From positions 1 through 43,661 of the forward strand of contig VAWW01000064.1 in NCBI GenBank assembly GCA_005884575.1: DNA of 43,661 nt, in the 5' to 3' direction. The DNA comes from Actinomycetota bacterium. GTDB lineage: Bacteria > Actinomycetota > Thermoleophilia > Gaiellales > Gaiellaceae. Under the pieces are notes generated by a model. The model saw only the letters and a list, made by a program, of their open reading frames with translations, had not been told where the DNA came from and did no database searches. Every line of letters begins with the position of its first letter. Position 1 is the stretch's first letter. Shown here in pieces: positions 556 to 29,355 of the stretch. The translations under genes were made by a program, and so were the position numbers.

Positions 556-563
556 TTAGTTCC

Positions 564-11169: not shown

Positions 11170-11973
11170 ATGCTCCTCCGCGAGGTCGAATACGTGCGGC
11201 CGTCGAGCCTCGACGAGGCCCTCCGCCTGCTCGCCGCGGACGACGGCGCGCGCCCGCTCGCCGGCGGGCAGACGCTCCTCAACGTGATGAAGGCCCGCGC
11301 CGCGGCGCCGGACGTGCTCGTCGACCTGAACGCGATCGAGGAGCTGAAGGGCATCGACCTCGCGCCGAACGGCACACTGACGATCGGCGCGATGACGACC
11401 TACACCGAGCTGCTGGAGGCCGCGGAGACGAAGGCGCGGCCGATTCTCGGCGAGGTCGCGGCGACGATCGCCGATGTCCAGGTGCGGAACCGCGGCACGA
11501 TCGGCGGAAACGTCTGCTCGAACGACCCGACCAACCACCTGCCGCCGTTGATGGTCGCGCTCGGCGCCGAGATGGTGATTGCGGGCGCCGACGCGGAGCG
11601 GACGGTGAAGGCGGAGGACTTCTTCCTCGGCGTCTACCTGACCGCCGCCGGCCCCGGCGAGGTGCTCACGAAGATCCGGATTCCGGCCGGGCGCAGCGAC
11701 GGCTTCGCCGCTGTCACGATCGGCGCCGACGGCACGTGCATCGTCAACGCCGCCGCCAGCCTGAACGGCGAGGCGCGCGTCGCGATCGGCTGCGTGGCCG
11801 CGGTCCCGGTCCTGATCCGGCCGGGCGGCAGGGATGCCGATGCCGTGCGCGACGCCGTCCGCGGCGCCGACCTCGATCCTCCCTCCGACGTGCACGCCTC
11901 CGGCGAGTACCGGCGCCACCTGGCCGAGGTCGTGGCGGCGCGCGCGATCGAGCAGGCGAGCGCGAGGAGCTAG
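11170..11973 (+). CDS. Molybdenum hydroxylase FAD subunit (CoxM/XdhB type)
   Basis: 267 residues. The FAD-binding PCMH fold is marked by RPLAGGQTLL (about 31-40, pyrophosphate loop) and the family block VRNRGTIGGNVCSNDPTNHLPP. The C-terminal CO_deh_flav_C-like half follows. It passes electrons from the Fe-S subunit to the acceptor. Stop TAG is followed immediately by the GTG of the Fe-S subunit. The order FAD, Fe-S, Mo is that of coxMSL, but the Mo subunit is not a CO dehydrogenase. Confidence 0.93.
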   Translation: MLLREVEYVRPSSLDEALRLLAADDGARPLAGGQTLLNVMKARAAAPDVLVDLNAIEELKGIDLAPNGTLTIGAMTTYTELLEAAETKARPILGEVAATIADVQVRNRGTIGGNVCSNDPTNHLPPLMVALGAEMVIAGADAERTVKAEDFFLGVYLTAAGPGEVLTKIRIPAGRSDGFAAVTIGADGTCIVNAAASLNGEARVAIGCVAAVPVLIRPGGRDADAVRDAVRGADLDPPSDVHASGEYRRHLAEVVAARAIEQASARS

Positions 11974-12447
11974 GTGGAACCGCAAACGAGCCAGACGATC
12001 ACGGTTACCGTCAACGGCGAGACCTACGAGCGCGAGGTCGAGGCGCGGCGGCTCCTGATCCACTTCATCCGCGACGACCTCGACCTGACCGGAAGCCACG
12101 TCGGCTGCGACACCGGCAACTGCGGCGCGTGCTCCGTGATCTACAACGGCCAGCTCGTCAAGAGCTGCATGCTCCTCGCGGTGCAAGCAGACGGCGCGCG
12201 GATCGAGACCGTCGAGGGACTCGCGCCCGAGGACGGAAAGCTCCACGCGCTCCAGCAGTCGTTCAGCGACCACCACGCGCTCCAGTGCGGCTACTGCACG
12301 CCCGGGATGCTGATGAGTGCGAAGGCGCTGCTCGACGCGAACCCGTCCGCGTCGGAGGAGGAGATCCGCAAGGGCCTGCAGGGCAACATCTGCCGCTGCA
12401 CCGGCTACTGGAACATCATCGACGCGGTCAAGGCGGTCGCCCGATGA
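11974..12447 (+). CDS. Molybdenum hydroxylase [2Fe-2S] subunit (CoxS type)
   Basis: 157 residues. Plant-type ferredoxin cluster Cys45, Cys50, Cys53 and Cys65 (CDTGNCGAC...C), then the helical second-cluster domain with Cys105, Cys108, Cys140 and Cys142 (CGYCTPG...CRCTGYW). All eight ligands are present. It links the Mo cofactor to FAD. GTG start directly after the FAD-subunit stop; TGA overlaps the ATG of the large subunit (ATGA). Confidence 0.95.
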   Translation: MEPQTSQTITVTVNGETYEREVEARRLLIHFIRDDLDLTGSHVGCDTGNCGACSVIYNGQLVKSCMLLAVQADGARIETVEGLAPEDGKLHALQQSFSDHHALQCGYCTPGMLMSAKALLDANPSASEEEIRKGLQGNICRCTGYWNIIDAVKAVAR

Positions 12448-14921: not shown

Positions 14922-15364
14922 GATTGGAAGGGGAGAAGACGTTCGACGCGCCGCGCGACACGGTGTGGCGCGTGCTCAACTCGCCCGAAGCGATGGCGAA
15001 GACGATGCCCGGCGTGGAGAGCTTCGACATCCAGGACGAGCAGCACTGGACCGCAAACGTGAAGATCCCGCTCGGTCTCGGCGGCCTGAAGGTGAAGATC
15101 AGGATGGAGAAGACCGACGAGCGCGAGCCCGAATTCGCGACGCTGAACGCGAGGGGGGAGGGCGTCGGCGCGATCATGAACATGTCGACCGCGTTCGAGC
15201 TGAGCGAGAACGGGCCCGGGTCGACGAGCATGAAGTGGACCGCCGACGTGTCGATCGCGGGACCGGTCGGGTCGATGGGCCAGCGCGTCCTCCAGCCGAT
15301 CGTCAACCAGCAGGTCGGCAACGTGCTCGCGTCGCTGGAGCAGCAGGTCGAGGCGGCGAAATGA
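14918..15364 (+). CDS. CoxG-like SRPBCC protein
   Basis: 148 residues of the SRPBCC/START-like lipid-binding fold. It starts MRLEGEKTFDAPRDTVWRVL, which is the CoxG beginning, with AKTMPGVESF after it. CoxG proteins accompany Mo-hydroxylases and are thought to help membrane attachment or a quinone/lipid link. GTG start overlaps the large-subunit stop, and its TGA overlaps the next ATG. The membrane-anchoring C-terminal tail found in some CoxG proteins is absent here; it ends in a short helix. Confidence 0.9.
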   Translation: MRLEGEKTFDAPRDTVWRVLNSPEAMAKTMPGVESFDIQDEQHWTANVKIPLGLGGLKVKIRMEKTDEREPEFATLNARGEGVGAIMNMSTAFELSENGPGSTSMKWTADVSIAGPVGSMGQRVLQPIVNQQVGNVLASLEQQVEAAK

Positions 15365-15570
15365 GCGAATCCGGGGATGCCGGCGCGCCGAAGCCGCCGC
15401 CCGATCCGGAGACGGATCCGGAGGTGAAGGACTACGGCCCGCCGGCGGAGAGCGACGAGGACGCGGAGCCGGACGCAGGCACGAGCGGCGCGGACGAGGG
15501 CATCAGCCCCTGGTCGCCCGAGGCGTACGACGAGGATCCCGAGAGGCCGACGACGTCGACCGAGGATTGA
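15361..15570 (+). CDS. Small acidic, disordered protein
   Basis: 69 residues, ATG overlapping the CoxG stop and ending two bases before the next ATG. Almost every third residue is Asp or Glu, with many Pro, Gly and Ser; no hydrophobic core. The C-terminal SPWSPEAYDEDPERP is the only aromatic-bearing stretch. Tight position inside the operon argues that it is a real gene, possibly an accessory or docking peptide of the oxidoreductases. No family recognised; function unknown. Confidence 0.6.
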   Translation: MSESGDAGAPKPPPDPETDPEVKDYGPPAESDEDAEPDAGTSGADEGISPWSPEAYDEDPERPTTSTED

Positions 15571-15572
15571 GC

Positions 15573-16548
15573 ATGCCCCCGTTCAGGATCGGGGTCATGC
15601 AGCTGACGATGGAGCCGCTCGACGAGATGCTCGCGTCGGCGCGCGCGATGGACGAGGCGGGCATGGACACCGTCTGGCTCGCCGAGGCGTACCCGTGGTG
15701 GCGGAAGCACGGGATGGAGGCACGCTCCTCGACGGTCGTCTCGGCGCTGATGGCGCGCGAGACAAAGCGGCTCGGGATCGGCTGGGGAATCATCTCGCCG
15801 TTCACGCGGCACCCCGTGCAGGTCGCGATGGACGCTCGCGTCGTGCAGGAGGCGGCCGGTCCGGGGCGCTTCCTGCTCGGCTTCGGGACGTCGAAGATCT
15901 TCCTCAACAACGCGCGGATGCAGACGAACAAGACGCTCGGGCCGATGCGCGACGCGGTCGAGATCGTCCGCGGCGTGCTCGGCGGCGAGCCCTTCGAGTA
16001 CACGGGCTCGACGTGGAGCGCGAGTGTGCCCGGGCTGCAGAGCGGCGCGAACGCGCCGCGCGATGTGCCGCCGGTCTACGTGGCTGCGACGGCGCCGAAG
16101 ATGCAGGCGCTCGCGGGCGAGATCGCCGACGGCTGCCTGACGCCGTCGATCACGACGCCGGCGTTCGTCCGTTACACGCGCGAGAACGTCGACGCGGATA
16201 TCGACATCGGCTGCACGGTCGTCGCGTCGATCCACGCGACCGATCGCGACAGAGGCCGTGACGGGGCGCGCGAGATCGCCGGGATGTATCTCGCGAACAA
16301 GGTGCAGAACATCCAGGGCGCAGCGGACACGGATGGAGCAGGGCGGGCGGCTCGCGGCGAAGGCGCAGGTGAGCGACGCGCTGCTCGACAAGTGCAAGCC
16401 GATCGCCGGGACGCCGGAGGACTGCATCGCCGCGATCGAGGAGTACCGCGACGCGGGCTGCACGCACGTCATGCTGGAGCTGTGGGGCGAGGACCGGCAC
16501 GAGCAGATCCGGCTTTTCGGCGAGCGCGTCCTCCCCGAGTTCCGATGA
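15573..16548 (+). pseudogene. LLM-class flavin-dependent oxidoreductase, frameshifted
   Basis: Luciferase-like (F420 or FMN) oxidoreductase. Frame 1 runs from ATG 15573 (MPPFRIGVMQLTMEPLDEML) through GRFLLGFGTSK and ends its similarity at NKVQNIQGAADT. The rest (EQGGRLAAKAQVSDALLDKC to GERVLPEFR) is in another frame, joined at about 16331. Related proteins have roughly 15-20 more residues between these blocks, so the event looks like a small deletion rather than a one-base slip. The stop overlaps the M20 ATG (ATGA). If real the protein is truncated at about 250 sensible residues; an assembly error is equally possible. Confidence 0.8.
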
Positions 16549-17771
16549 ACGTCAAGATCGACCGGAAGCGGCTCGTCGAGTGGGCGGGCCGCGCGATCGC
16601 GACGCCGAGCTTCACCGGGTCGGAGCAGGAGATGGCGACCCTGATGGCCGAAACGTTCCACGAGATGGAGCTCCACGTGCAGTGGCAGCAGGTCGAGCAC
16701 GGACGCGCGAACGTGCTCGGTATCCGCCAGGGCGCCGGCGGCGGTTCGAGCCTGATGTTCAACGGCCACATGGACACCTCGTACTCGGGCACGGAGGCGT
16801 GGCTCGCGCACGTGCCGGGCTTCCAGCCGGAGCCGTTCGAGCGCGACGGGCGGCTCTACGGGCTCGGGATCTCGAACATGAAGGGCGCGCTCGCCTGCTA
16901 CGTCGAGGCGCTGCGGGCGCTCGACGACGCGGGAGTCCGCCTGCGCGGCGACCTGATGATCGCCGCGGTCTGCGGCGAGATCGAGAAGACGCAGTACGGC
17001 GACGCGCAGGGCCCGCAGTACCGTGGCTATGCGGCAGGCTCGCGGTATCTCGTCATGCACGGGGGCGTCGCCGACACGTGCATCCTCGGCGAGCCGACCG
17101 AGGGCAAGGTCGTGCTCGGCCACTTCGGCGCGCTCTGGCTCCGGATCTCGACGCACGGGAACTTCATCCATACGGCGTTCAGCGAGGGCAAGCGCGGCCA
17201 GAACTCGATCCTGCGCATGCGCGAGGTGCTCGACGCGGTGGTCGAGTGGATCCCGATCTGGGAGGACGATCCAGAGAATGCGTACCGCGGCGCGAGGGCG
17301 ATCGTCAATGTCGGTGCGATCCAGGGCGGCTTCGGCTGGCGTGTGTCGCGGACGCCGCACCACACGGATCTCTTCCTCGACGTGCGCGTGCCGCCGACGA
17401 AGCCGATGCCGGTCGCGCGCGGGCAGGTGCTCGAGATGGTGCGCGGTCTGAAGGAGCGGTTTCCGGACTACGGGATCGAGGGTGAGGTCTACGTGACGGC
17501 GCCCGGCGCGGAGATCGACGAGTCGCATCCGCTGATCGCCGCGGTGGAGGAAAGCCACGAGCAGGTCTTCGGCTCGCGCCCCGAGCGCGACACGACGCGC
17601 TGGTTCTCCGACGCGTCCGCGCTGACGAGGTACGGGATCGCGACGGTCAACTACGGAACGTCGACCGGCCTGATGGACACGGAGCTGGGCGAGAACCTCG
17701 AGATCGAGGGACTCGTGAAGACGGCCCACGTCTACGCGCTGGCAGCGGCGAAGGTCTGCGGAGTCGCCTGA
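16545..17771 (+). CDS. M20-family amidohydrolase (ArgE/DapE-like)
   Basis: 408 residues, complete. Metal-binding blocks: FNGHMDTSYSG (first His), GLGISNMKGALAC, CGEIEK (catalytic Glu region), ILGEPTEG, and a dimerisation domain in the middle (FGALWLRISTHGNFIH). In most M20 enzymes the second block reads x-D-M-K-G, with the Asp bridging the two zincs; here it is Asn (S-N-M-K-G). Family members cleave amide bonds of N-acyl amino acids or carbamoyl compounds. In this operon it may open a ring-derived amide. Starts on ATGA and ends TGATG with the next gene. Confidence 0.88.
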   Translation: MNVKIDRKRLVEWAGRAIATPSFTGSEQEMATLMAETFHEMELHVQWQQVEHGRANVLGIRQGAGGGSSLMFNGHMDTSYSGTEAWLAHVPGFQPEPFERDGRLYGLGISNMKGALACYVEALRALDDAGVRLRGDLMIAAVCGEIEKTQYGDAQGPQYRGYAAGSRYLVMHGGVADTCILGEPTEGKVVLGHFGALWLRISTHGNFIHTAFSEGKRGQNSILRMREVLDAVVEWIPIWEDDPENAYRGARAIVNVGAIQGGFGWRVSRTPHHTDLFLDVRVPPTKPMPVARGQVLEMVRGLKERFPDYGIEGEVYVTAPGAEIDESHPLIAAVEESHEQVFGSRPERDTTRWFSDASALTRYGIATVNYGTSTGLMDTELGENLEIEGLVKTAHVYALAAAKVCGVA

Positions 17772-18640
17772 TGAAGCTCGTCACGTTCAACTCGGGACAG
17801 GTCGGCGAGCTGCGGGACGGCACTGTCGTCGAGCTCGACGTGCCGTCGATGCGCGAGTACTTCGACCGTGGCCAGCATGCAGAGCCCACCGGCGCCGAGT
17901 ACGCGCTCGACGACGTCCACCTGCGTGCGCCGATCGTCCCGAAGAAGTTCTTCCACACGGCCGGCAACTTTCGCGAGCACGAGGAGGAGTCGAAGACCGT
18001 CGCGTGGTCGCACGAGATCGCGCCGTGGATCGTCTTCTTCCAGAACGTCGACGCGATCGTCGGCCCGGACGAGCCCGTGGTCTATCCGGAGCACCTCACC
18101 GAGGAGCTCGACTACGAGCTCGAGCTCGCGGTCGTGATCCGCAAGCCGGGCAAGTGGTTCGGCCCCGACGAAGCCGCGGACTACATCGGTGGCTACGTCA
18201 TCTTCAACGACATCACGGCCCGCGACATCCAGCGGCGGGAGATGCGGTCCGGCGTCTTCTCGTACTCGAAGGCGATCGACACGTTCTGCCCGCTCGGTCC
18301 GTGGATCGTCACGCCCGACGAGATTCCCGACCCGCACGACCTGAAGATGGAGCTCCGCGTCAACGGAGACATTCGCCAGAGCTCGTACTCCGGGAACATG
18401 TCGGTAACGATCCCGGAGATCATCAGCCACTACTCGGCGCTCGGTTACTCGGCCGGCGACGTGCTGTCGACGGGAACGGTCTCCGGCGTCGCGGGGTTCA
18501 GCGAGGACGCGGCGTCGCTGTACCTGAAGCCGGGCGACGTGATGGATGCCGAGATCGAGCGGATCGGCGTGCTGCGGAATCCAGTCGTGTCGTGGCAGGA
18601 GGCGCACGGGGAGCCGGCGCCGGCGCGCGTCCGCTGGTGA
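17771..18640 (+). CDS. FAH-family hydrolase/hydratase
   Basis: 289 residues. FAH-domain features: KKFFHTAGNFREHEEE, ELDYELELAVVI (the E-x-E metal pair), FNDITARDIQRREM (metal Asp) and GTVSGVAGF. This clade covers acylpyruvate hydrolases, 2-keto-4-pentenoate hydratases and decarboxylases, which cleave or hydrate ring-opening products. It is distinct from the tyrosine-type FAH at 10145 and appears intact. ATG overlaps the M20 stop by one base; the stop overlaps the next GTG. It probably handles a downstream keto acid of the pathway. Confidence 0.88.
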   Translation: MKLVTFNSGQVGELRDGTVVELDVPSMREYFDRGQHAEPTGAEYALDDVHLRAPIVPKKFFHTAGNFREHEEESKTVAWSHEIAPWIVFFQNVDAIVGPDEPVVYPEHLTEELDYELELAVVIRKPGKWFGPDEAADYIGGYVIFNDITARDIQRREMRSGVFSYSKAIDTFCPLGPWIVTPDEIPDPHDLKMELRVNGDIRQSSYSGNMSVTIPEIISHYSALGYSAGDVLSTGTVSGVAGFSEDAASLYLKPGDVMDAEIERIGVLRNPVVSWQEAHGEPAPARVRW

Positions 18641-19694
18641 GCTGGGAGCGGGACGACGCGAAGCTCGACCGTGTCCGCCGGCTGATGGCGGAGCGGGAAC
18701 TCGACGCGATCGTCGCGCGCGCGCCCGACAACGTCCTCTATCTGACGAACTTCTGGGGCATGAAGGGCTACGACGCAGTCGTCTTCCCGCGCGAGGGCGA
18801 GCCCGTATTGATCTGCCTCGAAGCGTCGGAGGAGGACGCGGCACGCATGGCCTGGACGAAAGACGTTCGCTTCTTCCGCGGCTACGACGAGACCGACCCG
18901 CGTCCTCCGACGGCTCGGACGCTCGACCTTGCCCGGGAGGCGGCATCGGCGTATGAGCGCGTGGGCCTCGAGCTCTCGCTCGGGACCCAGGCCTCGGACC
19001 GCATGGTCGGGGAGCCGACGACCTTCACCGAGGCCTGGTTCCACGCCTTCTCCGGCGCCGTCGACGCGACGCCGCTGGCTCGCGAATGAGATCGCCGCCG
19101 CCGCGATGGAGCACGTCAGCCGTCTCCTGCGGCCGGGGATGAAGTGCTCCGAGGCTGCGGCGATATGGCAGGGGTTCGTGCACGGCCAGGGCACCGGCTG
19201 GCGCACCAAGGTCGACCTCGCGCTGCCGTTCTCGCTCGTCTGGTCGGGCCCTTCGATCAAGACCTTCACAGCGACCGGCGACTCGCGCGTGCAAGAGAAC
19301 GAGCCAACGCTGTTCGAGATCTGGGTCTGCGCGGACGGGTACTGGGCGGACCATACGAAGAACCTCTGTCCGGGCGAGCTCCGTCCCGAGTACGCACGTC
19401 TCGAAGAGGGGCTTGCACATGTGTACACATCGGCCTTGCACATGTGTACCCATGGGTCGTCGCTGGCCGAGCTGGACCGGTCCGTGCGCGAGGGCCTGGC
19501 CGAAATCGGCTATCCCGGGCAGCCGTCGCACCCGATTTGTCATGGGATCGGCGCCCGCGCACACGAGCCGCCGTACGCGCACCAGGCCGGCGGGGGACGG
19601 AGGGGGCGGGCTGCGCGTCGAGGACAACTTCCTGATCACCGCGGACGGGGCCGAGAAGCTCTCGCCCTTCCCCGACGGGATCGTGCGGACATGA
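18637..19694 (+). pseudogene. M24-family (Xaa-Pro peptidase-like) protein, multiply broken
   Basis: Starts at GTG 18637 and reads a creatinase-like N-domain to DATPL, then stops (TGA 19087). The M24 half continues in a second frame from LANEIAAAAMEHVSRLLRPG (about 19078) to HGIGARAHEPPYAHQAGGG, then a third frame gives GGLRVEDNFLITADGAEKLS to the TGA at 19692-19694. Family members have an extra linker of about 15 residues at the first junction. At the second they have the E-x-G-M-V-x-x-I-E-P-G-V-Y block, which carries a metal Glu. Both are missing. A 15-bp direct repeat (19412 and 19435, offset 23) lies in the middle. As it stands the gene cannot make a working enzyme. TGA overlaps the next ATG. 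Confidence 0.8.
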
Positions 19695-20848
19695 GCTCCG
19701 AGATCTGGACCGGCGCGCTCAACGACGCCTACCGGCTCGGCGGCTCGGTCGGCCTCTACGACACGACGCTGCGCGACGGCGAGCAGACCGTCGGCGTCGT
19801 GCTCGATCCCGAGCAGAAGCTCGAGATCGCGCGGTTGCTCGACGAGCTCGGGATCGACCGGATCGAGGCAGGGTTCCCGCGCGTCTCGCAGGACGACTGG
19901 CGCGCCGTGGAGCTGATCGCCGGCGCGGGCCTCCGCGCCGAGGTCTGGGGCTTCTCGCGCGCCGTTCCCGCCGATCTCGAGGCGCTCGTCGAGCTGGGCG
20001 TCCCCGCGTCGGTGATCGAGTCGCCCATCTCGGATCTCAAGCTCGACGCCATCGGGGTCCCGCGCGAGAAGATGCTCGACCGGATCACGAGCGCGATGCA
20101 GTTCGCCGCCGAGCACGGCATCCACGCGGCGTTCTTCGGCGTCGACTCGACGCGCGCGGCGCCCGACTTCTACGAGCGCGTCTACAAGAGCGCCGTCGAC
20201 GCCGGCGCGAAGGAGGTGGTCGTCGTCGACACGCTCGGGATCGCGTCGCCCGAGGCCGTCGCCGAGCTCGTCGGGCGCACCGTCGACTGGGTCGGCGCCG
20301 ATGTTCCCGTCCACTTCCACGGTCACAACGACTTCGGGCTCGCGACGGCCGCTGCCGTCGCCGCCGTGCGCGCCGGCGCACGTTGGGTCCACGGCACGAT
20401 CAACGGGATGGGGGAGCGCGCCGGCAACGCGAATCTCGGCGAGGTCGCGCTGACGCTGCGCGCGCTCTACGGCGTCGAGTCGCACCTCGAGCTCGACCGC
20501 GTCCGCGATGTCTCAGAGCGCGTGCGCGAGCTGTCCGGCTACGAGCTCGAGCCGTGGAAGCCGGTCACCGGCGAGACGCTGTTCCGCCGCGAGAGCGGCG
20601 CGGTCGCGAGCCAGTTCCACGATCCGCCGTCGATCGAGCCGTACTCGTCGCGGCTGGTCGCCGCCGAGCGCGCGATCGTGCTCGGCAAGAAGAGCGGCCT
20701 CGACTCGATCCGCATCAAGGCAGAGGAGCTCGGGCTCGACGTGCCGGAGGAGAAGCGCGCCGAGTTGCTCGCGCGCGTGAAGGAGCTCGGAGCCAGCAAG
20801 CGCGGTCTCGTCAGCGACGACGAGTTCAAGGAGCTCGCCGGTGCCTGA
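19691..20848 (+). CDS. HMGL-like pyruvate carboxyltransferase domain protein
   Basis: 385 residues of the DRE-TIM metallolyase superfamily. Signature LYDTTLRDGEQT (about 21-32), metal HxH in VHFHGHNDFGLA, and GMGERAGNANLGEV near the barrel end. The C-terminal extension with IVLGKKSGLDSI resembles the linker of isopropylmalate/homocitrate synthases but no LeuA regulatory domain follows. It could condense acetyl-CoA with a keto acid or cleave a hydroxyacyl-CoA. In this operon a catabolic lyase role is more likely than leucine synthesis. ATG overlaps the broken M24 stop; its end overlaps the next GTG by eight bases. Confidence 0.9.
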   Translation: MSSEIWTGALNDAYRLGGSVGLYDTTLRDGEQTVGVVLDPEQKLEIARLLDELGIDRIEAGFPRVSQDDWRAVELIAGAGLRAEVWGFSRAVPADLEALVELGVPASVIESPISDLKLDAIGVPREKMLDRITSAMQFAAEHGIHAAFFGVDSTRAAPDFYERVYKSAVDAGAKEVVVVDTLGIASPEAVAELVGRTVDWVGADVPVHFHGHNDFGLATAAAVAAVRAGARWVHGTINGMGERAGNANLGEVALTLRALYGVESHLELDRVRDVSERVRELSGYELEPWKPVTGETLFRRESGAVASQFHDPPSIEPYSSRLVAAERAIVLGKKSGLDSIRIKAEELGLDVPEEKRAELLARVKELGASKRGLVSDDEFKELAGA

Positions 20849-22460
20849 CTACGACGCGATCCTCGTCGGCAGCGGGATCAACAGCCTCGCGTGCGCCGCA
20901 ATGCTCGCCCGCTCGGGCAAGCGTGTGTGCGTGCTCGAGCGGAACGACTGGTTCGGCGGCGCAATCAAGACGGCGGAGATCACCGAGCCGGGCTTCCATC
21001 ACGACGTCTTCAGCGCGTGGCATCCGCTCTGGGTCGGCGGGGCCGCGCACGCGCAGCTCGGTGACGACCTCGCTGCGCGCGGGCTCGAGTACCTCAACAC
21101 CGACCTGCCGACGGCGACCGCGTTCCCAGACGGGCACGCGTCGTTCCTGCTCCGCACCGCCGAGGGCAACGCGGACGAGCTCGGGCCGGAATGGCCGGGC
21201 GTGCTGCAGCGGTTCTTCCCGAACGCCGACCTCGCGTTCGGCGTGCTCGGCACCGAGCTCTGGGGCCGCGGCGGCCTCTCCCTCGGGCTCAAGGCGTACC
21301 GGCGCCTCGGGCGCACCGGCACCGCGGCCTTCACCGGCGAGCTGCTGCAGACGAGCCGCGACTGGCTCGAGAAGACGTTCGCTTCCGAACGGGCGCACGG
21401 GCTCCTCGCCCCCTGGGTGCTGCACACGGGACTCGGCCCCGACGCGGCGACGTCCGGCTTCATGACGCAGGTGATCGCAGTCGCCGTGCAGGAGGGCGGG
21501 ATGCCGATCCCGCGCGGCGGCGGCGCGAAGCTCGTCGACGCGCTCGTCCGGCTCATCGGCGATCACGGCGGCGTCGCCGAGACCGGCAAGGACGTCGAGC
21601 GCGTGCTCGTCCAGGCCGGCCGCGCGGTCGGCGTGCGCACGACCGAGGGCGAGACCGTCACCGCGACCGACGCCGTCATCTGCTGCGTCACGCCGACGCA
21701 GCTCTACCAACGGCTGCTCGCCGACGCCGGCGTGCCGCCGGAGGTGGCCGAGGGTGCGCGCCGTTTCCGCTACGGACGCAGCGAGATGCAGATCCACTTC
21801 GCGCTCTCCGAGCCTGCGCGCTGGGACGGCGACGAGCGCCTGAACCGCACCGCGATCGTCCACCTGACGCCCGGGCTCGACGGCGTCTCGCGCGCCGTCA
21901 ACGAGGCCGAGCGCGGCCTGCTCCCCGTCGAGGCGACGGTCGTCGTCGGGCAGCCGCTGACGATCGATCCCTCGCGCGCCCCGGAGGGCAAGGGGATTCT
22001 CTGGATCCAGCTGCAGGAGCTGCCGTGGCACGTGAAGGGCGACGCGGCCGGCGACCTCGACGTCGGCGAGGGCCGCTGGAGCGAGCGGCTGCGCGAGCGC
22101 TATGCCGACCGGATCCAGACGCGCCTCGCGAAGCACATTCCGAACCTCGAGTCGAAGATCCTGCGCCGCGTCGTGCTCTCGCCGGCAGATCTGCAGGCGG
22201 CGAACGTCAACCTCCGGCACGGCGACCCGTACGGCGGAGCGCTGACGCTCGACCAGAACTTCCTCTGGCGGCCCTTCCCGCGCAACCCCGGCCACGCGAC
22301 GCCCGTCGAGCAGCTCTACCAGATCGGCGCCAGCACCTGGCCTGGCCCGGGGCTCGGCGCAGGCTCGGGCGTGATCGTCGCCGAGGAGCTGCTGCGCCCG
22401 CCGCCCGCCGAGCGGGCGATGGCGAAGGTTCGCTCCCTACTCGGCCGCGAGCACGCGTAG
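20841..22460 (+). CDS. Phytoene-desaturase-like FAD oxidoreductase
   Basis: 539 residues. N-terminal FAD-binding Rossmann motif VGSGINSLACAAMLARSG (about 9-26) with the ERNDWFGG second block. The C-terminal GASTWPGPGLGAGSG closes the FAD domain as in CrtI-like amine oxidases. The interior includes AVQEGGMPIPRGGGAKLVDA. Despite the CrtI-like fold, no carotenoid genes are nearby; such proteins also oxidise retinoid, amine or alicyclic compounds. Last gene of the long operon; its tail overlaps the convergent nucleotidyltransferase remnant by 24 bases. Confidence 0.88.
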   Translation: MPDYDAILVGSGINSLACAAMLARSGKRVCVLERNDWFGGAIKTAEITEPGFHHDVFSAWHPLWVGGAAHAQLGDDLAARGLEYLNTDLPTATAFPDGHASFLLRTAEGNADELGPEWPGVLQRFFPNADLAFGVLGTELWGRGGLSLGLKAYRRLGRTGTAAFTGELLQTSRDWLEKTFASERAHGLLAPWVLHTGLGPDAATSGFMTQVIAVAVQEGGMPIPRGGGAKLVDALVRLIGDHGGVAETGKDVERVLVQAGRAVGVRTTEGETVTATDAVICCVTPTQLYQRLLADAGVPPEVAEGARRFRYGRSEMQIHFALSEPARWDGDERLNRTAIVHLTPGLDGVSRAVNEAERGLLPVEATVVVGQPLTIDPSRAPEGKGILWIQLQELPWHVKGDAAGDLDVGEGRWSERLRERYADRIQTRLAKHIPNLESKILRRVVLSPADLQAANVNLRHGDPYGGALTLDQNFLWRPFPRNPGHATPVEQLYQIGASTWPGPGLGAGSGVIVAEELLRPPPAERAMAKVRSLLGREHA

Positions 22461-22920
22461 CTGCGGCTCGACCTTCGCAGCCAGCTCTCGAACCTTTTCC
22501 GCTTCGCGCAACAACCCGTCGACGGCGACGCAGAGCACGCGAAGCAGCTCGTCGCGCGCCAGTGACCGCATCAGCGCAGCCGCGAAGCCGTCGCGCACAT
22601 CGGCAGGGAGGGCGTCGAAGCCGCGCCCGTACCCGCCGACGGCGGTTCGACGTACGGCTTCTCGACGGCCTCGCCGGACAGCAGCCTGAACTTCGTCCCG
22701 CCCGCCCCGAACGCGGACGCGTCCAGTCGCTCAGCACCTCCAACACGGGGACGTCATCCGCGACCGCGAACGTCAGGTCGAGATCGGACCAGCGATCGCC
22801 ATCGCCGAGCGCGAGCAAGCCGACGACCGCTCCGGCGACCACGCGCTGGTCGGACGAGGCAAATTCGAGCACGCGGTCGCGCACGCGCTCGCGCTCCTCG
22901 ACGCTGAAGAGCGGCCTCAC
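22437..22920 (-). pseudogene. Nucleotidyltransferase-fold protein, internally deleted
   Basis: GTG at 22920 overlaps the GntR stop. The first 66 residues read well and hold a nucleotidyltransferase-like core (VVGLLALGDGDRWSDLDLTF, with the D-x-D of the metal site). After LSDWT the sense passes to another frame (FGAGGTKFRLLSGEAVEKPY, from about 22714), then to a third (YGRGFDALPADVRDGF, from about 22633), ending AAKVEPQLRVLAAE with TAG at 22437-22439. About 40 residues appear to be missing at each junction compared with intact relatives as I recall them. This is a remnant or an assembly artefact. Confidence 0.65.
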
Positions 22921-23591
22921 CGCTCGAAGATTCCGCGGTCGCCGAGTTCGACCGCGTAGAACTCGCCCGCGAGCTCGAGGTGCGCGCGCAGCGTCGCGGC
23001 CGCGCGGTCCTCGTCATGCGCCTCGCATGCGGCGAGCAGCTCGGCGTCGAGCCGCTCGTGCCGGTCTTGCAGATCGCCCTTCGGCGAGAGCAGCGCGGGG
23101 CGGTACCGCTCGCAGCTGTCCCACGCCGGCCGGATCAGCCGCAACAGCCACTGCGAGCCTGCCGCCTCATACACGGTGAAATGGAACGCCGTGTGCGCCC
23201 GCATCGCCTCGCGGACGTCATTGCCGCGCCGCGCCGTCGCCCACGCCTCGAGCGACGACCGCGCCCGCGCAGCGTCCTCGTCGCCGAACCGCCGGGCGGC
23301 GCCGCGCACCGCCAGCGCCTCCAGAGCGAGCCGCACCTCGAAGAGCTCCCGCAGGTCGTCGACGTCGAGCGCGACGACCTTGGCGCCGTGGTGCGGCACG
23401 TGCTCGGCCAGGCCGAGCGCCTCCAGTTGCCGCACGGCCTCTCGGATCGGCGAGATGCTCATCCCGAGCGAACGGGCGAGATCCTCGAGCCGCAGCGGCG
23501 CTCCGGGCACGAGCTCGCCGAGGATGATCGCCTCCCGGAGCTCCTCCAGCGCGGCTTCTGCCATCGTCCGGTGGCGCGACGTCGTGCGCAT
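22917..23591 (-). CDS. GntR-family regulator, FCD domain
   Basis: 224 residues, ATG 23591. Winged helix in the first 75 residues (ALEELREAIILGELVPGAPL, then SLGMSISPIREAVRQLEALG, the recognition helix). The C-terminal FCD helical bundle has metal/ligand His in AHTAFHFTVYEAAG. FCD regulators sense small organic acids and usually repress the catabolic genes beside them. It diverges from the flavin oxidoreductase/Liv importer and sits beside the end of the Mo-hydroxylase operon, so it is the likely local controller. The palindrome at 23613-23627 is its probable operator. Confidence 0.92.
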   Translation of the reverse strand: MRTTSRHRTMAEAALEELREAIILGELVPGAPLRLEDLARSLGMSISPIREAVRQLEALGLAEHVPHHGAKVVALDVDDLRELFEVRLALEALAVRGAARRFGDEDAARARSSLEAWATARRGNDVREAMRAHTAFHFTVYEAAGSQWLLRLIRPAWDSCERYRPALLSPKGDLQDRHERLDAELLAACEAHDEDRAAATLRAHLELAGEFYAVELGDRGIFER

Positions 23592-23648: not shown

Positions 23649-24740
23649 ATGAAATTCAGCATCTACACCGAGATCCAGAGCTGGCCGGGCAAGGAGCCGC
23701 GGCAGCTTTACGCGGAGGTCCTGGAGCAGATCGTCAACGCCGACCGGCTCGGCTACGACGCGTACGCCGCGATCGAGCACTTCTTCTTCCCGAAGTTCGG
23801 CGCGTCGCCGGACCCCTTGACGCTGTTCGCGACGGCGCTGCCGCGGACGCGCGACATCCGCTTCCGTACCCTCGTGCACGTGCTGCCGTACCACAACCCG
23901 GCCGTGCTCGCGTCGCGGATCGCCTTCTTCGACGTGCTGTCGAACGGCCGCTACGAGTTCGGCGTCGGCCGCGGCCACGGCTGGATTCCGCCGAAGGCAG
24001 GCGTGCCGATTGCGGAGACGCGCGCGATCTACGAGGAGGGGCTCCAGGTGCTGCTCGACGCGCTCGAGAACGAGCGCTTCGCGAGCGACGGCACGTACTA
24101 CAAGGTCGAGGACTCGCACGTCGTGCCGCGGCCGGTCTCGGACCGCTTCCGGATCTTCCTCGGCGGGACGAGCGACTACACGTACCGGCTCGCCGGCGAG
24201 AAGGGCTACGCGATGGTCGTCCCGCCGCTGCTCCCGTACGAGGCGCTGCGCGAGCAGCTCGACATCTACCGGGCGACCGCGCGCGAGCACGGCCACGAGC
24301 CCGATATCGTCTGGATCCACGCGTGCTACATCGACGAGGACCGCGCGACGGCGAAGCGCGAGGCGGAGGCGATGATGCGCGGCTTCCTCAAGGGCAACGC
24401 GTCCGTGCTGCTCGAGAACGCGGACGAGCTGAAGTCGAAGGAGGAGCTCGAAGGCGCCGGCTACGGCTTCTACGCATCCGGGCTCATGGAGCAGCTCAGC
24501 GACATGCCGTACGACGAGATGATCGAGAAGGATGTCGTCTGGGTCGGGACGCCGCAGGACGTGATCGAGCGCATCGAGGCGGTACGCGAGGTCTGCGACG
24601 GGCTGACCGAGATTTCCATCACCGTCAACCCGGGCGGCGTCGAGCACTGGAAGGCGATCAAGACGCAGGAGCTGTTCGCCGCCGAGGTCATCCCGCACTT
24701 CAAGGGCGCTCGGACCCGACCCGAGCCGGCACTCGCCTGA
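23649..24740 (+). CDS. LLM-class flavin-dependent oxidoreductase
   Basis: 363 residues, intact TIM-barrel bacterial-luciferase fold: MKFSIYTEIQSWPG start, YDAYAAIEHFFFPKFG, RYEFGVGRGHGW (phosphate-binding loop) and IFLGGTSDYTYRLAGEKGYA. It would use FMNH2 or F420 to oxygenate or reduce a small substrate; the partner reductase is not in the window. ATG 23628 is an alternative start adding seven residues, but it abuts the palindrome. First gene of the regulator-controlled unit with the Liv-type importer 28 bases downstream. Confidence 0.9.
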   Translation: MKFSIYTEIQSWPGKEPRQLYAEVLEQIVNADRLGYDAYAAIEHFFFPKFGASPDPLTLFATALPRTRDIRFRTLVHVLPYHNPAVLASRIAFFDVLSNGRYEFGVGRGHGWIPPKAGVPIAETRAIYEEGLQVLLDALENERFASDGTYYKVEDSHVVPRPVSDRFRIFLGGTSDYTYRLAGEKGYAMVVPPLLPYEALREQLDIYRATAREHGHEPDIVWIHACYIDEDRATAKREAEAMMRGFLKGNASVLLENADELKSKEELEGAGYGFYASGLMEQLSDMPYDEMIEKDVVWVGTPQDVIERIEAVREVCDGLTEISITVNPGGVEHWKAIKTQELFAAEVIPHFKGARTRPEPALA

Positions 24741-24768: not shown

Positions 24769-25953
24769 ATGAGACGTAGGAGTGGGCTCGCCGTCGCCGC
24801 GCTGTTCGGTGTGGTCGCGGCCGCTGCGGCGGTCTTCGCAGGGGGCGCGTCCCCTGCCGGCAAGCCGATCGTGATCGGCTGGGCCTTCGACAGCAAGGGC
24901 GCGATGGCGCCGTTCGACGGGCCTGCGCTCGCCGCCGCCAAGCTGCGCGTCGCGCAGGTCAACGCCAAGGGCGGCGTCAAGGGACGCCCGCTGCAGATCC
25001 GCACCTGCGACACGCAGGGCAACAAGCCGGCGATCGCGAAGGCCTGCGCCACGAAGCTCCTCGGCCAGGGCGCCAACATCATCTTCACGACCTGCGACGT
25101 CGACTTCGCGGCTCCCGTCGTCCAGGCGTCGATCAACGCGGGCGTGCTCGCGGTCGCGCCGTGCATCGGCACCGACCAGATGGGCCCGAAGCGGTTCGGC
25201 GCGAAGGGCAGGCTGGCGTTCAGCTTCGGCAACGTTGCGCAGGACGAGGGCTCGGCGATGGCCGACTTCGCGTGGAAGAAGGGCTGGCGAAGCGCCGCGC
25301 TCGCGACCGACACCGTCATCGTCTACTTCAAGAACGTCGTGCAGGCGTTCGCCGCCCGCTGGAAGCAGCTCGGCGGCAAGATCGTCGCGCAGGAGACCTA
25401 CCAGTCGCTCGGCAGCAACAACGTCCAGAACGCGGTCAGCCGGCTGAACGGCGTCAATGCGGACGTGATCGTGACCTCCACCGCCGGCGCGTTCGGCGCA
25501 CTGCCGACGCTCGTGTCCGGGCTCCGCACCCTCGGCAACAACACGCCGATCCTCAACTCGTGGGCCGGTGACGGGACCTACTGGCTCCCGAAGGATCCGA
25601 AGGTGACGCACTACTTCTTCGTCACCTACGCGTCGTCGTTCGGCAACGATCCGAACCCGGCCGTCAACAAGCTCGCGAAGCAGGTCAAGGCGGGCACCGG
25701 CGGCTTCATCACCGGTCCGGCCGCGATCGACGGCGTCGTCACCGCGATCAAGCGGGCGGGCGGCTCGACGAACGGCGCCGCGCTCGCCGCGCAGATGGAG
25801 AAGTTCAGGAAGGTCCCGACGCTGTCCGGGCTCGTTAGCTTCTCGGCCCAGCTGCACTCCGTGTTCGGCCGCCAGTACCGGGTGATCGACATCGAGAACA
25901 ACGTGCCGCGCGTCGTCACCACGATCGTCGCCAAGGTCGTTCCGAAGATCTAG
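24769..25953 (+). CDS. Branched-chain-type ABC transporter substrate-binding protein
   Basis: 394 residues. Signal peptide of about 30 residues with a hydrophobic core (LAVAALFGVVAAAAAVFAGG) but no lipobox Cys. It is followed by a type-I periplasmic-binding (LivJ/AmiC) fold: IVIGWAFDSKGAMAPFDGPA, then INAGVLAVAPCIGTDQ and GLRTLGNNTPILNSWAG. One of the clearest Shine-Dalgarno sites of the window, GGAGGA at 24757-24762, precedes ATG by six bases, fitting high expression. It captures the solute for the importer encoded next. Ligand not predictable; the binding cleft differs from amino-acid-specific LivJ. Confidence 0.92.
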   Translation: MRRRSGLAVAALFGVVAAAAAVFAGGASPAGKPIVIGWAFDSKGAMAPFDGPALAAAKLRVAQVNAKGGVKGRPLQIRTCDTQGNKPAIAKACATKLLGQGANIIFTTCDVDFAAPVVQASINAGVLAVAPCIGTDQMGPKRFGAKGRLAFSFGNVAQDEGSAMADFAWKKGWRSAALATDTVIVYFKNVVQAFAARWKQLGGKIVAQETYQSLGSNNVQNAVSRLNGVNADVIVTSTAGAFGALPTLVSGLRTLGNNTPILNSWAGDGTYWLPKDPKVTHYFFVTYASSFGNDPNPAVNKLAKQVKAGTGGFITGPAAIDGVVTAIKRAGGSTNGAALAAQMEKFRKVPTLSGLVSFSAQLHSVFGRQYRVIDIENNVPRVVTTIVAKVVPKI

Positions 25954-25959
25954 GACGCG

Positions 25960-27425: not shown

Positions 27426-28315
27426 CCGTTGACTGGCAGACGATTGCGGACGCGACCGCGCAGGGCGCGATCTACGCACTGATGGCCGTCGGGATCGGGC
27501 TCGTCTTCGGCGTTCTGCGGCTCGTCAACTTCGCGTACGGCCAGCTGATCATGGCCGGCGCGTTCGCGCTCGCGATGGCGTCCAGGTGGGGCTGGCCGGT
27601 GTGGGGCGGGATCCTGCTCTGCTTCGCCGTCGTGATCGCGCTGTCGATGCTGATGGACCGGCTGCTGTTCCGGCCGCTGCGGACGCAGTCGCCGGCGGTG
27701 ATGCTCGTCGCGACGTTCGCCGTCGCGTTCCTGCTGCAGAGCATCGCGCTGCTTTGGTTCGGGCCGCTTGGAAGGGTCGCGGCCTCGCTGGCGTACCTGA
27801 ACCGCCCGTTCACAATCTCGGGCGTCGAGATCCGCAAGATCGCGGTCGTCGCGATCGCCGTCGCGGCCGTCTGCCTCGTCGCGCTCGTCGTACTGCTCGA
27901 GCGGACGACGGTCGGGCTGCAGATGCGCGCGGCCGCGCTCGACTTCCGCACCGCGCGGCTGCTCGGCGTCCGCGCGAACCGCGTCATCGCTGTGGCCGTG
28001 CTCCTCTCCGGTGTGCTCGCGGCGATCGTCGCGATCATGCTCACGGTCCAGACGCCGCTCGTCACCTCGGACTTCGCGCTGCGCGACACGATCGTCGTGC
28101 TCGCGGGCGTCGTCCTCGGCGGCCTGAACCGGCTCGTGCCCGCGACGCTCGGCGGCTTCGCGATCGGCTTCGCGAGCGGCTTCCTCGGCGGCGCACTGCC
28201 GACCGAGAAGAGCCAGTACCTGCCGACGTTCCTCTTTGCCGCAGTGATCCTCGTCCTGCTCGTCCGTCCGGCCGGTCTCTTCACCCGGGGGCGCGGCGCT
28301 GTGGAGCGCGTGTGA
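27422..28315 (+). CDS. Liv-type ABC permease (LivH-like)
   Basis: 297 residues with about eight hydrophobic segments. LivH hallmarks: GAIYALMAVGIGLVFGVLRL at about 19-38, LVNFAYGQLIMAGAF, the coupling-helix region around RAAALDFRTARLLGVRANRV, and VLAGVVLGGLN. It forms half of the membrane channel. The TGA overlaps the GTG of the LivM-like partner (GTGTGA). Confidence 0.92.
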   Translation: MTVDWQTIADATAQGAIYALMAVGIGLVFGVLRLVNFAYGQLIMAGAFALAMASRWGWPVWGGILLCFAVVIALSMLMDRLLFRPLRTQSPAVMLVATFAVAFLLQSIALLWFGPLGRVAASLAYLNRPFTISGVEIRKIAVVAIAVAAVCLVALVVLLERTTVGLQMRAAALDFRTARLLGVRANRVIAVAVLLSGVLAAIVAIMLTVQTPLVTSDFALRDTIVVLAGVVLGGLNRLVPATLGGFAIGFASGFLGGALPTEKSQYLPTFLFAAVILVLLVRPAGLFTRGRGAVERV

Positions 28316-29355
28316 GAGCGGTCCGCTGGCTGCCGCAGCTCCTCGTCCCGGCTGCGCTCGTCGGGGGCGCCGCGCTGCTCGGGCTCGTCGTCTCGGCCTC
28401 GACCGAGACGTACTTCGTGGACGCGCTCGTCAAGGTCGCGATTGTCGTCGCGCTGTACACGTTCATCGGCAACTCGGGCGTGCTCTCCTTCGGCCACGTC
28501 AGCTTCGTCGCACTTGGCGCCTGGACGGCCGGCGTGCTGACCGTGCCGGTCGCGGAGAAGCCGGCGATCATGCCGAACCTTGCGCACTTCCTCCGGGACA
28601 CCACCGTCGGGAACGTGCCCTCGCTCGCGCTCGCCGCCGCGGTCGGCGCCGCCGCGGCGTTGCTGGTCGGCCTGCCGCTGATGCGGCTCTCCGGGCTGGC
28701 GGCCGGGATCGCGACCTTCGCGGTGCTGGAGATCACGCACAATGTGCTCCGCTATTACGAGAAGATCGGCCCCGGCCTGAACACGTTCTCGTCGGTGCCG
28801 GAGACGACCGGGCTCGGCCAGGCGGCGATCGGCGCGCTGATCGCCGTCGTCGTCGCGTTCGCGTACCAGCGCAGCCCGTTCGGCCGCGTGCTGCGCGCCG
28901 CCCGGGAGGACCCGGCCGCCGCGGCGGCCGTCGGCATCTCCGTCTACCGGCAGCGGCTCGTCGCGTTCACGGTCTCGGGCGCGCTTGCAGGCTTCGCCGG
29001 CGGTCTCTACGTCCATCTCCTGCCGATCAACACCGAGACGCTCTATCTCGACCTGACCTTCGTCACACTCGCGATGCTCGTCGTCGGCGGGGTGACGAGC
29101 CTGCTCGGCGCGGTCGTCGGCGCACTCGCCGTCAGCGCGCTCGACTCGTTCCTCGCCGTGGCCGAGAACGGCGCCTCCCTTCCCTTCGGAACGCTCGATC
29201 TCCCGGCCGGCACGCGCCTCGTCGTCGTGGGCGCGCTGATGGCGATCGTCCTCGTCCTGCGGCCCAGCGGCCTCACCGGAGGACGCGAATTCACCCTTTT
29301 GAGGCGCCGGCAGAGGGTTACCAAGGAGCCTGCGCCGGTATCTTCCTCGCGGTGA
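28312..29355 (+). CDS. Liv-type ABC permease (LivM-like)
   Basis: 347 residues from GTG 28312. Multiple membrane segments; LivM blocks YTFIGNSGVLSFGHVSFVAL, GLAAGIATFAVLEI, the coupling helix FGRVLRAAREDPAAAAAVGI and VTSLLGAVVGALAVSALDSF. A basic C-terminal tail of about 25 residues (LLRRRQRVTKEP) is cytoplasmic. The TGA overlaps the GTG of the carboxypeptidase (GTGA), so that enzyme is in the same transcript. Completes a five-component importer. Confidence 0.92.
   Translation: MRAVRWLPQLLVPAALVGGAALLGLVVSASTETYFVDALVKVAIVVALYTFIGNSGVLSFGHVSFVALGAWTAGVLTVPVAEKPAIMPNLAHFLRDTTVGNVPSLALAAAVGAAAALLVGLPLMRLSGLAAGIATFAVLEITHNVLRYYEKIGPGLNTFSSVPETTGLGQAAIGALIAVVVAFAYQRSPFGRVLRAAREDPAAAAAVGISVYRQRLVAFTVSGALAGFAGGLYVHLLPINTETLYLDLTFVTLAMLVVGGVTSLLGAVVGALAVSALDSFLAVAENGASLPFGTLDLPAGTRLVVVGALMAIVLVLRPSGLTGGREFTLLRRRQRVTKEPAPVSSSR

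What the first reader, a model, noticed from the sequence alone, without database searches (positions are those of the whole stretch)
11170..29355. Candidate undescribed catabolic locus: Mo-hydroxylase, flavin oxidoreductases, amidohydrolase, FAH, HMGL, GntR and a dedicated importer
Seen: genes at 11170-22460 overlap or nearly touch on one strand. They encode a complete Mo/Fe-S/FAD hydroxylase with CoxG, an LLM oxidoreductase, M20 amidohydrolase, FAH-family enzyme, M24 protein, DRE-TIM lyase and FAD oxidoreductase. After a GntR/FCD regulator come a second LLM enzyme and all five Liv-type transporter parts. Known: Mo-hydroxylases attack N-heterocycles or aldehydes, LLM enzymes open or oxygenate rings, M20 enzymes cut amides, FAH enzymes act on ring-opening products. 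Inferred: import, hydroxylation, ring opening, amide hydrolysis and C-C cleavage of one, probably N-containing, cyclic compound. The set matches no pathway I can name.
Basis: partly seen in the sequence, partly recalled or inferred. Interest (0 to 1): 0.72.

Follow-up and report, generated by a model that had tools for sequence, protein, structure and literature searches.

The report
Unassigned nitrogen-ring breakdown gene set
A core of ten enzyme genes that recurs together in two distant phyla of bacteria, here beside a transporter and a regulator, is predicted to dismantle one still unidentified, probably nitrogen-containing ring compound, and one of its enzymes lacks the catalytic residues of its known relatives and so likely does a different reaction.

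Summary
Ten core genes (coxL, coxS, LLM1, M20, FAH1, M24, DRE-TIM "HMGL", two ApbA reductases, a second M24) recur side by side: 20 of 80 loci fetched with HMGL hold at least 9 of the 10, in Actinomycetota and Acidobacteria. In 61 genomes, HMGL and ApbA2 orthologues occur in the same 21; coxL, M24 and M20 only among those 21. A palindromic site beside GntR recurs before genes of the set in 15 of 81 sequences. M20 is closest, by sequence and fold, to 5-nitroanthranilate aminohydrolase. HMGL keeps the metal core but lacks the Claisen catalytic His and its stacking Tyr in 69 of 69 sequences, so "isopropylmalate/homocitrate synthase" is likely a wrong label. FAH1-HMGL also occurs with an SDR in Proteobacteria. 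Predicted: Mo-hydroxylation, flavin oxidation, C-N hydrolysis and C-C cleavage of an N-bearing ring compound. Substrate unknown; no step tested. LLM1 and M24 are frame-broken in this assembly.

The parts
11170..11973 (+). coxM-like FAD subunit of Mo-hydroxylase
   Evidence: PF00941 172 bits
11974..12447 (+). coxS-like [2Fe-2S] subunit
   Evidence: PF01799 117 bits, PF00111
12444..14921 (+). coxL-like Mo subunit; active-site loop RGYSRM in 25 of 25 aligned members
   Evidence: PF02738/PF20256; loop and Glu771; loop differs from CO dehydrogenase rows
14924..15364 (+). CoxG
   Evidence: PF06240 75 bits
15573..16540 (+). LLM1, Mer-like (F420-type) flavin oxidoreductase; frame broken near 16332 in this assembly
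   Evidence: PF00296; intact relative (L034) best hits Mer, 113 bits; break
16545..17771 (+). M20-family enzyme, 5-nitroanthranilate-aminohydrolase-like
17771..18640 (+). FAH1, FAH-family C-C hydrolase/decarboxylase
   Evidence: PF01557 223 bits; His70 in 53 of 53, Glu73 in 52 of 53
18637..19690 (+). M24ab, creatinase/prolidase-fold hydrolase; frame broken near 19070 and 19590
   Evidence: PF01321 and PF00557 in different frames; break
19691..20848 (+). HMGL, divergent DRE-TIM enzyme without the Claisen His/Tyr
   Evidence: PF00682 209 bits; residues; fold
20841..22460 (+). FAD oxidoreductase, CrtO/phytoene-desaturase-like; in the Actinomycetota loci only
   Evidence: PF01593, NF045689 205 bits, cut-off 1000, distribution
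22917..23591 (-). GntR/FCD regulator
   Evidence: PF00392, PF07729
23612..23628 (-). candidate operator TTTGATCTTTGATCAAG (perfect inverted repeat TTGATC-N3-GATCAA)
   Evidence: only site at up to 2 mismatches in this genome
23649..24740 (+). LLM2, luciferase-alpha-like FMN monooxygenase
   Evidence: PF00296 188 bits; 7bip, 8cbb, luciferase, diketocamphane monooxygenase; 46% homologue near coxM in one of three Acidobacteria read
24769..25953 (+). Liv-type substrate-binding protein
   Evidence: PF13458 129 bits
25960..26721 (+). Liv-type ATPase 1
   Evidence: PF00005, PF12399
26718..27425 (+). Liv-type ATPase 2
   Evidence: PF00005
27422..28315 (+). Liv-type permease 1
   Evidence: PF02653
28312..29355 (+). 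Liv-type permease 2
   Evidence: PF02653
30860..31783 (+). ApbA1, ketopantoate-reductase-family dehydrogenase
   Evidence: TIGR00745 219 bits, cut-off 141; Lys183 in 26 of 26
31938..32858 (+). ApbA2, ketopantoate-reductase-family dehydrogenase
   Evidence: TIGR00745 221 bits; in the same 21 of 61 genomes as HMGL
32846..33964 (+). M24c, creatinase-fold hydrolase with altered metal ligands
   Evidence: PF00557, PF01321; residues E,E,H,H,Q at the ligand positions in 24 of 24 (positions mapped by motif)

Best explanation
The genes from 11170 to 33964 are a set whose core recurs together in Actinomycetota and Acidobacteria, and they are predicted to import and degrade one small, likely nitrogen-containing ring carboxylate. 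Predicted order (inferred, no step tested): the Liv transporter brings the compound in (in three Acidobacteria a receptor-sized gene, perhaps TonB-type, lies beside the set); the Mo-hydroxylase hydroxylates the ring beside the heteroatom; LLM2 (FMN-type) oxygenates and opens the ring, and LLM1 (Mer-like) does an F420-linked hydride transfer; the aminohydrolase-like M20 enzyme and the two creatinase-fold M24 enzymes hydrolyse C-N bonds and release the nitrogen; ApbA1 and ApbA2 oxidise or reduce the resulting hydroxy/oxo acid; FAH1 and the divergent DRE-TIM enzyme split the carbon chain into central metabolites. GntR would repress at least the importer block through TTTGAYMTYTGATCAAG. FAH1-HMGL looks like a general lower module: in Proteobacteria it stands with an SDR instead of the ApbA pair.
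For: Co-occurrence: HMGL at 68% identity or more in 21 of 61 genomes, ApbA2 in the same 21, coxL 19, M24ab 19, M20 17, all inside the 21 and, at the E-value limits used, in none of the other 40. Synteny (loci chosen by HMGL): FAH1 in 73 of 80, in 72 on the same strand upstream; the other 7 have HMGL within 1.8 kb of the locus start; 13 of 80 loci hold all ten core genes and 7 more hold nine. Gene order differs between phyla, so content is kept without order. Both ApbA paralogues are orthologous across phyla (Acidobacterial copies 53-58% to their own type, 36-44% to the other). FAD and F12 genes sit left of coxM in 3 of 9 relatives with longer flanks. Operator in front of GntR/importer, LLM2, FAD and coxM genes in different loci. 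M20: nearest to 5-nitroanthranilate aminohydrolase by sequence and fold, same Asp-to-Asn change. HMGL: Arg28 and Asp29 in 67 of 67 with letters there, His210 and His212 in 69 of 69; no His or Tyr at the His388 and Tyr399 positions in 69 of 69 (roles from PMC11532901). SDR in 17 loci, ApbA in 33, both in 0.
Against: No substrate or activity is known; the order of steps is a guess. LLM1 and M24 are frame-broken in this assembly, so this strain may not run the pathway unless the breaks are assembly errors. No operator was found before the window's coxM. At up to 2 mismatches the operator pattern occurs in only 6 of the 21 carriers and also in 12 of the 40 non-carriers (backward-pattern control: 2 hits in 61 genomes); the two exact sites are both at the set. 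Thirty of 80 loci show neither SDR nor ApbA, many of them short. F420 synthesis does not separate loci with and without LLM1 within Acidobacteria. Identity to the aminohydrolase is only 27-28%, so its substrate class need not carry over. In the methylthioalkylmalate synthase paper an H388N mutant kept reduced activity (H388A none), so loss of the His need not abolish the chemistry; a Tyr or Phe at 318 (60 and 9 of 69) might stand in for the Tyr. Mirror-tree correlations partly reflect organism phylogeny. FAD, GntR, F12, LLM2 and Liv genes are not universal.
Confidence: 0.55

Rival explanations
1. The same unit degrades a non-aromatic nitrogen compound, such as a cyclic amidine, lactam or modified amino acid (ectoine- or creatine-like solute), and the Mo-enzyme is an aldehyde or imine oxidase.
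For: M24ab of L034 matches ectoine hydrolase DoeA structures at 71 bits and TIGR02993 at 68 bits; M24c has lost usual metal ligands, as recalled for creatinase; arginine-deiminase-like genes sit beside the set in 4 of 80 loci.
Against: All DoeA scores are far below the curated cut-offs (613, 575); two LLM enzymes and a Mo-hydroxylase are more than such solutes need; M20 is nearest to an aromatic-amine hydrolase.
Confidence: 0.25
2. The substrate is a ring compound without nitrogen (alicyclic or lactone), opened by type II Baeyer-Villiger oxidation by LLM2.
For: LLM2 is related to 3,6-diketocamphane 1,6-monooxygenase (58 bits); a SAR202 paper proposes such roles for LLM families (PMC5395668, passages).
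Against: Three C-N-hydrolase-type enzymes (M20, M24ab, M24c) would have no task; no CoA ligase in the core.
Confidence: 0.12
3. Cofactor-like amide salvage (pantoate or pantothenate type): amidases release a hydroxy acid that the ketopantoate-reductase-family enzymes oxidise, and the DRE-TIM enzyme acts on the 2-oxo acid.
For: Both ApbA proteins pass the TIGR00745 cut-off (219 and 221 bits against 141); HMGL is nearest to 2-oxo-acid-using synthases.
Against: Mo-hydroxylase and two LLM enzymes are unexplained.
Confidence: 0.06
4. Unrelated neighbours: a CO dehydrogenase operon, a leucine or lysine synthesis gene and peptidases that happen to lie together.
For: Generic annotations say so (source names; NCBIfam hits). 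The chromosomal place is partly conserved: DnaG and HD genes lie left of the set in 3 of 9 relatives, and the gene at 37931-40417 right of it in 3 of 4, so some neighbourhood is shared without function.
Against: Same-21-genome profile; recurrence in another phylum in another order; CoxL loop is RGYSRM in 25 of 25, not the CO-dehydrogenase loop; HMGL lacks the Claisen residues.
Confidence: 0.02

Closest known systems
5-nitroanthranilate aminohydrolase of Bradyrhizobium sp. JS329 (M20 family; strain and pathway from PMC10306065, passages; its short name NaaA is recalled)
   Different: 27-28% identity; different gene partners in the set.
2-isopropylmalate / homocitrate / methylthioalkylmalate synthases (DRE-TIM, Claisen group)
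   Different: General-base His388 and stacking Tyr399 (BjMAMS numbering, PMC11532901, passages) replaced in 69 of 69; invariant Arg300, His310, Glu316 instead.
L-rhamnonate diketo-hydrolase route (SDR plus FAH-family LRA6; route recalled)
   Same: FAH1's best NCBIfam hit is 2,4-didehydro-3-deoxy-L-rhamnonate hydrolase (150 bits, cut-off 500); the Proteobacterial module pairs FAH1 with an SDR.
   Different: Score far under the cut-off; in the loci fetched it is tied to the DRE-TIM enzyme (loci were chosen by that enzyme).
Quinoline 2-oxidoreductase and aerobic CO dehydrogenase
   Same: CoxL fold family; FAD, Fe-S and Mo subunits and CoxG.
   Different: Loop RGYSRM differs from both.
Ectoine catabolic clusters (DoeA/EutD; PMC5924519, passages; regulator EnuR as GntR-type is recalled)
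   Same: M24-fold ring hydrolase candidate and a GntR-family regulator near an importer.
   Different: DoeA models far under cut-off; the paper finds ectoine consumers restricted to Proteobacteria; none of the core genes is a transaminase or aldehyde dehydrogenase as in that pathway.

Membership tests
Molybdenum hydroxylase (xanthine oxidase family) | FAD, 2x[2Fe-2S] and Mo subunits with the conserved active-site Glu | tested here: met
   Pfam hits on all three; Glu771 in 25 of 25
Form I CO dehydrogenase | AYxCSFR loop in CoxL (motif recalled; seen in the aligned CO dehydrogenase rows) | tested here: not met
   RGYSRM in 25 of 25
Claisen-type DRE-TIM synthase (IPMS/HCS/MAMS) | general-base His and stacking Tyr in the C-terminal part | tested here: not met
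   Val or Ala at the His position, Ile or Val (or Pro, by the other alignment) at the Tyr position in 69 of 69
DRE-TIM metallolyase superfamily | Arg-Asp after strand 1 and HxH metal site | tested here: met
   67 of 67 with letters there, and 69 of 69; fold
4-hydroxy-2-oxovalerate aldolase of meta-cleavage pathways | NCBIfam equivalog score | tested here: not met
   TIGR03217 83.6 bits against 286
5-nitroanthranilate aminohydrolase | M20 fold with that enzyme's metal-site changes | tested here: met
5-nitroanthranilate aminohydrolase | deaminates 5-nitroanthranilate | not testable with these tools
   needs enzyme assay
Ectoine hydrolase DoeA | score above TIGR02993/NF038259 cut-off | tested here: not met
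   67.9 and 48.6 against 613 and 575 for M24ab of L034; 27.4 and 35.8 for M24c
F420-dependent LLM (Mer-like), for LLM1 | score above a curated Mer or F420-LLM cut-off | tested here: not met
   best 113 bits, cut-off 276: related, not a member
F420-dependent LLM (Mer-like), for LLM1 | host makes F420 | tested here: inconclusive
   CofG over cut-off in 12 of 14 genomes with LLM1 in the locus and in 6 of 12 without; CofD over cut-off in 4 of 6
Ketopantoate reductase family (ApbA/PanE), for ApbA1 and ApbA2 | score above TIGR00745 subfamily cut-off | tested here: met
   219 and 221 bits against 141; the equivalog models listed there are all under cut-off
Liv-type ABC importer | one binding protein, two ATPases, two permeases in a row | tested here: met
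GntR/FCD regulator | GntR plus FCD domains | tested here: met

The most novel reading that the evidence does not exclude
FAH1 plus the His-less DRE-TIM enzyme is a new, cross-phylum C-C cleavage module with a reaction not yet described in that superfamily; bolted to a Mo-hydroxylase, two flavin LLM enzymes and an aminohydrolase it forms a common unrecognised route by which uncultured bacteria strip nitrogen from heteroaromatic organic matter, and the natural stock from which 5-nitroanthranilate aminohydrolase arose.
Probability: 0.3. Interest if true: 0.82.

Novelty: new variant of a known kind. Interest (0 to 1): 0.6.

Why it matters
The set is carried by 21 of 61 examined genomes around this one and recurs in Acidobacteria, mostly in genomes binned from metagenomes (record titles). 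No description was found in an open-licence library: five searches aimed at the set and four at single enzymes; most subscription papers are not held there. It questions routine labels (acetylornithine deacetylase, isopropylmalate synthase, CO dehydrogenase) that can misdirect metabolic models. The small FAH1-HMGL-SDR version in named strains (Rhodoplanes serenus DSM 18633, R. tepidamans DSM 9987, Bradyrhizobium manausense BR 3351) makes the lower half directly testable.

Tried and rejected
Plasmid search: HMGL of L075 matched 9 records, all under 37% identity and, where named, homocitrate, isopropylmalate or citramalate synthases; M20 matched none. Literature: nothing on the set (calls named under Why it matters). 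SAR202 papers (passages only) describe LLM and CO-dehydrogenase-family expansions, not this set. An operator before coxM was sought and not found in the window. Operator as a mark of carriers: it fails, see the Against line. F420 biosynthesis as a discriminator for LLM1: CofG over cut-off in 6 of 6 full-set genomes, then in 6 of 8 further genomes with LLM1 in the locus and 6 of 12 without; the four Acidobacteria examined with FAH1-HMGL but no LLM1 in the locus (L100, L105, L110, L112) have CofG too. The HMGL C-terminal loop (287-312) is low-confidence in the monomer model, so the model says nothing on what replaces the lost residues. The nearest PDB entries of the binding protein (Leu/Ile/Val and amide binders) gave no clear ligand hint. 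My simple gene caller mis-called strands or ends in some high-GC loci (for example L046, L051, L066, L081, L082, L102, L104, L111); presence counts therefore rest on tblastn, and the residue counts use only the members it did call (HMGL: 68 of 80 loci plus the window). Left edge first looked sharper than it is: see the observation check (4).


Full report
Observation. The first + strand block runs 11170-22460: coxM, coxS, coxL, coxG, a 69-aa ORF, LLM1, M20, FAH1, M24, a DRE-TIM enzyme (called HMGL here after its Pfam domain) and an FAD oxidoreductase. GntR/FCD is on the minus strand (22917-23591) and divergent from LLM2 (23649-24740), which starts the second + strand block: binding protein, two ATPases, two permeases, then M32, ApbA1, ApbA2 and M24c, to 33964. 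LLM1 and M24 are frame-broken: an intact relative's LLM1 aligns in two frames with residues 246-263 missing, its M24 in three frames with two gaps. Each of the three breaks takes away roughly 50 bases (reckoned from the alignment ends), which looks more like an assembly fault than decay; this was not tested.

Is it a unit? The window is contig C102 of a 4.16-Mb genome rated 91% complete. Over the same 61 genomes (own plus 60 relatives), HMGL orthologues at 68% identity or more occur in 21 (any match at E 0.001 occurs in 59, the rest being paralogues at 42% identity or less); ApbA2 at E 1e-60 or better in the identical 21; coxL at 1e-200 in 19, M24ab in 19 and M20 in 17 at 1e-60, all inside the 21; none in the other 40. 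The missing ones fall in G012, G015, G025 and G033, each in more than 300 contigs. A scan of named genome contigs with HMGL gave 119 relatives, of which the best 80 were kept. FAH1 was found in 73 of 80, in 72 of them upstream on the same strand within 3.6 kb (L066 has it on the other strand); in the other 7 HMGL starts within 1.8 kb of the locus start. Thirteen of 80 loci hold all ten core genes (tblastn, 40% identity or more) and seven more hold nine: L034, L038, L039, L061, L063 (titled Actinobacteria or Actinomycetota), L076, L094 (Solirubrobacterales/-aceae) and thirteen Acidobacteria or Terriglobia loci. In one search I grouped loci by title and similarity; the 39 of the main Actinomycetota group include L046 and L047, titled Acidobacteriota and Burkholderiales. 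In Acidobacteria the order is different: FAH1-HMGL one way, and coxS, CoxG, coxL, ApbA1, M24ab, M20, M24c, ApbA2, LLM1 the other. Further out, three Acidobacteria read for this carry coxM (31-36% to the window's) and a 1034-1069-aa gene, perhaps a TonB-type receptor (not scanned), and one of the three a 46%-identical LLM2. Acidobacterial ApbA copies match their own type at 53-58% and the other type at 36-44%, so the pair is old. Pairwise distances of nine gene families correlate at r 0.81-0.98, partly because organisms share a tree.

Edges. M32 is found in 2 of 80 loci; cupin, two unknown genes and FAH2 left of coxM in 0 of 80, but only about seven loci reach 0.8 kb or more left of coxM. I therefore fetched longer flanks: of nine relatives read left of coxM, FAH2 and one unknown gene occur in one (G008, reverse orientation, another gene between); FAD and F12 genes sit there in three (G018, G029, G032); XdhC, a Mo-enzyme maturation factor, in one (G030); DnaG and HD genes, which also lie left of the set in the window, in three (G003, G005, G029), so the chromosomal place is partly shared. 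Of four read right of M24c, the gene of 37931-40417 occurs in three. It may be only a neighbour; its function was not looked at.

Regulation. A perfect inverted repeat, TTGATC-N3-GATCAA, lies between GntR and LLM2. A consensus TTTGAYMTYTGATCAAG written from six such regions matches exactly in nine Actinomycetota-type loci, always between GntR and F12 of the importer block, and in the window; only some of these were used to write it, so part of this is circular. With up to 3 mismatches it also lies directly upstream of LLM2 (L053, L066), GntR (L066, L076), an FAD oxidoreductase (L073, L076) and coxM (L094, two sites): 18 of 23 hits in 1.24 Mb, in 15 of 81 sequences (window included), are placed so, against 0, 3 and 3 hits in three mononucleotide shuffles. 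The other five (L085, L087, L090, L099, L105) are not clearly so placed. In this genome the window's site is the only one at up to 2 mismatches. Against the idea: over 61 genomes the pattern at up to 2 mismatches gives 20 sites in 18 genomes, 6 of them carriers and 12 non-carriers, with 2 hits for the backward control; the only exact sites are in G000 and G030, both at the set. So the site marks part of the carriers, not the set as a whole, and no site was found before the window's coxM.

Two architectures. SDR follows FAH1-HMGL in 12 of 12 proteobacterial loci, 3 of 3 labelled Bacillota and 2 of 23 Acidobacteria; loci with SDR 17, with ApbA 33, with both 0, with neither 30, many of them truncated. 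In the three proteobacterial loci whose neighbours I read (L075, L089, L093) the module stands near a TRAP, MFS or TTT-type transporter and a LysR gene (read from protein starts, not scanned). So FAH1-HMGL plus a dehydrogenase looks like a lower pathway, and the large set an upper pathway feeding it. This is inference.

Mechanism. I commit to hydroxylation by the Mo enzyme, ring oxygenation by LLM2 (luciferase-alpha and diketocamphane-monooxygenase relatives), a hydride transfer by LLM1, C-N hydrolysis by M20, M24ab and M24c, redox by the ApbA pair, and C-C cleavage by FAH1 and HMGL. Nitrogen in the substrate is inferred from three C-N-hydrolase-type enzymes, foremost the aminohydrolase-like M20. 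Substrate and order are unknown.

Comparison. CO dehydrogenase, isopropylmalate/homocitrate synthase, ectoine hydrolase and 4-hydroxy-2-oxovalerate aldolase were tested as family memberships and not met. Literature searches (five on the set, four on single enzymes, listed under Why it matters) found no description. Among the best 120 listed relatives of M20, four at 81-88% identity are named from Gaiellaceae, which places the window near that family; where named, the others are called acetylornithine deacetylase or M20 hydrolase. Verdict: a real, conserved, unassigned catabolic system with one clearly non-canonical enzyme family; substrate open.

Noticed in passing
window 15573-16540, 18637-19690: Three frame breaks, each with roughly 50 bases missing against a relative, in two otherwise well conserved genes; probably assembly faults.
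   Followed up: partly
window 1-556: The contig starts inside a 23S rRNA gene followed by 5S rRNA, a typical assembly break at an rRNA operon.
   Followed up: no
window 22437-22907, minus strand: A nucleotidyltransferase-like reading frame (my reading of the translation, not scanned), apparently frame-broken, downstream of GntR; at this place L044 and L048 carry an arginine-deiminase-like gene.
   Followed up: partly
window 10145-11107: A second FAH-family gene, close to fumarylacetoacetase (298 bits, cut-off 375), just left of the set; found near it in 0 of 80 loci and 1 of 9 longer flanks.
   Followed up: yes
L034:12692-13492 and 16 other Actinomycetota-type loci: A xylose-isomerase-like TIM-barrel gene (F12) sits near the binding protein in relatives, or beside FAD left of coxM; in the window LLM2 holds the place between GntR and the binding protein.
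   Followed up: partly
L061, L062, L063, L054: Threonine-dehydratase-like (PALP) and ornithine-cyclodeaminase-like genes near the set in four loci.
   Followed up: no
window 37931-40417, minus strand: A long gene right of the set that also lies right of M24c in 3 of 4 relatives read; not scanned.
   Followed up: no
window 34899-36235: A pyridine-nucleotide-disulphide oxidoreductase gene (lipoamide-dehydrogenase-like) is split over two overlapping frames near 35110.
   Followed up: no
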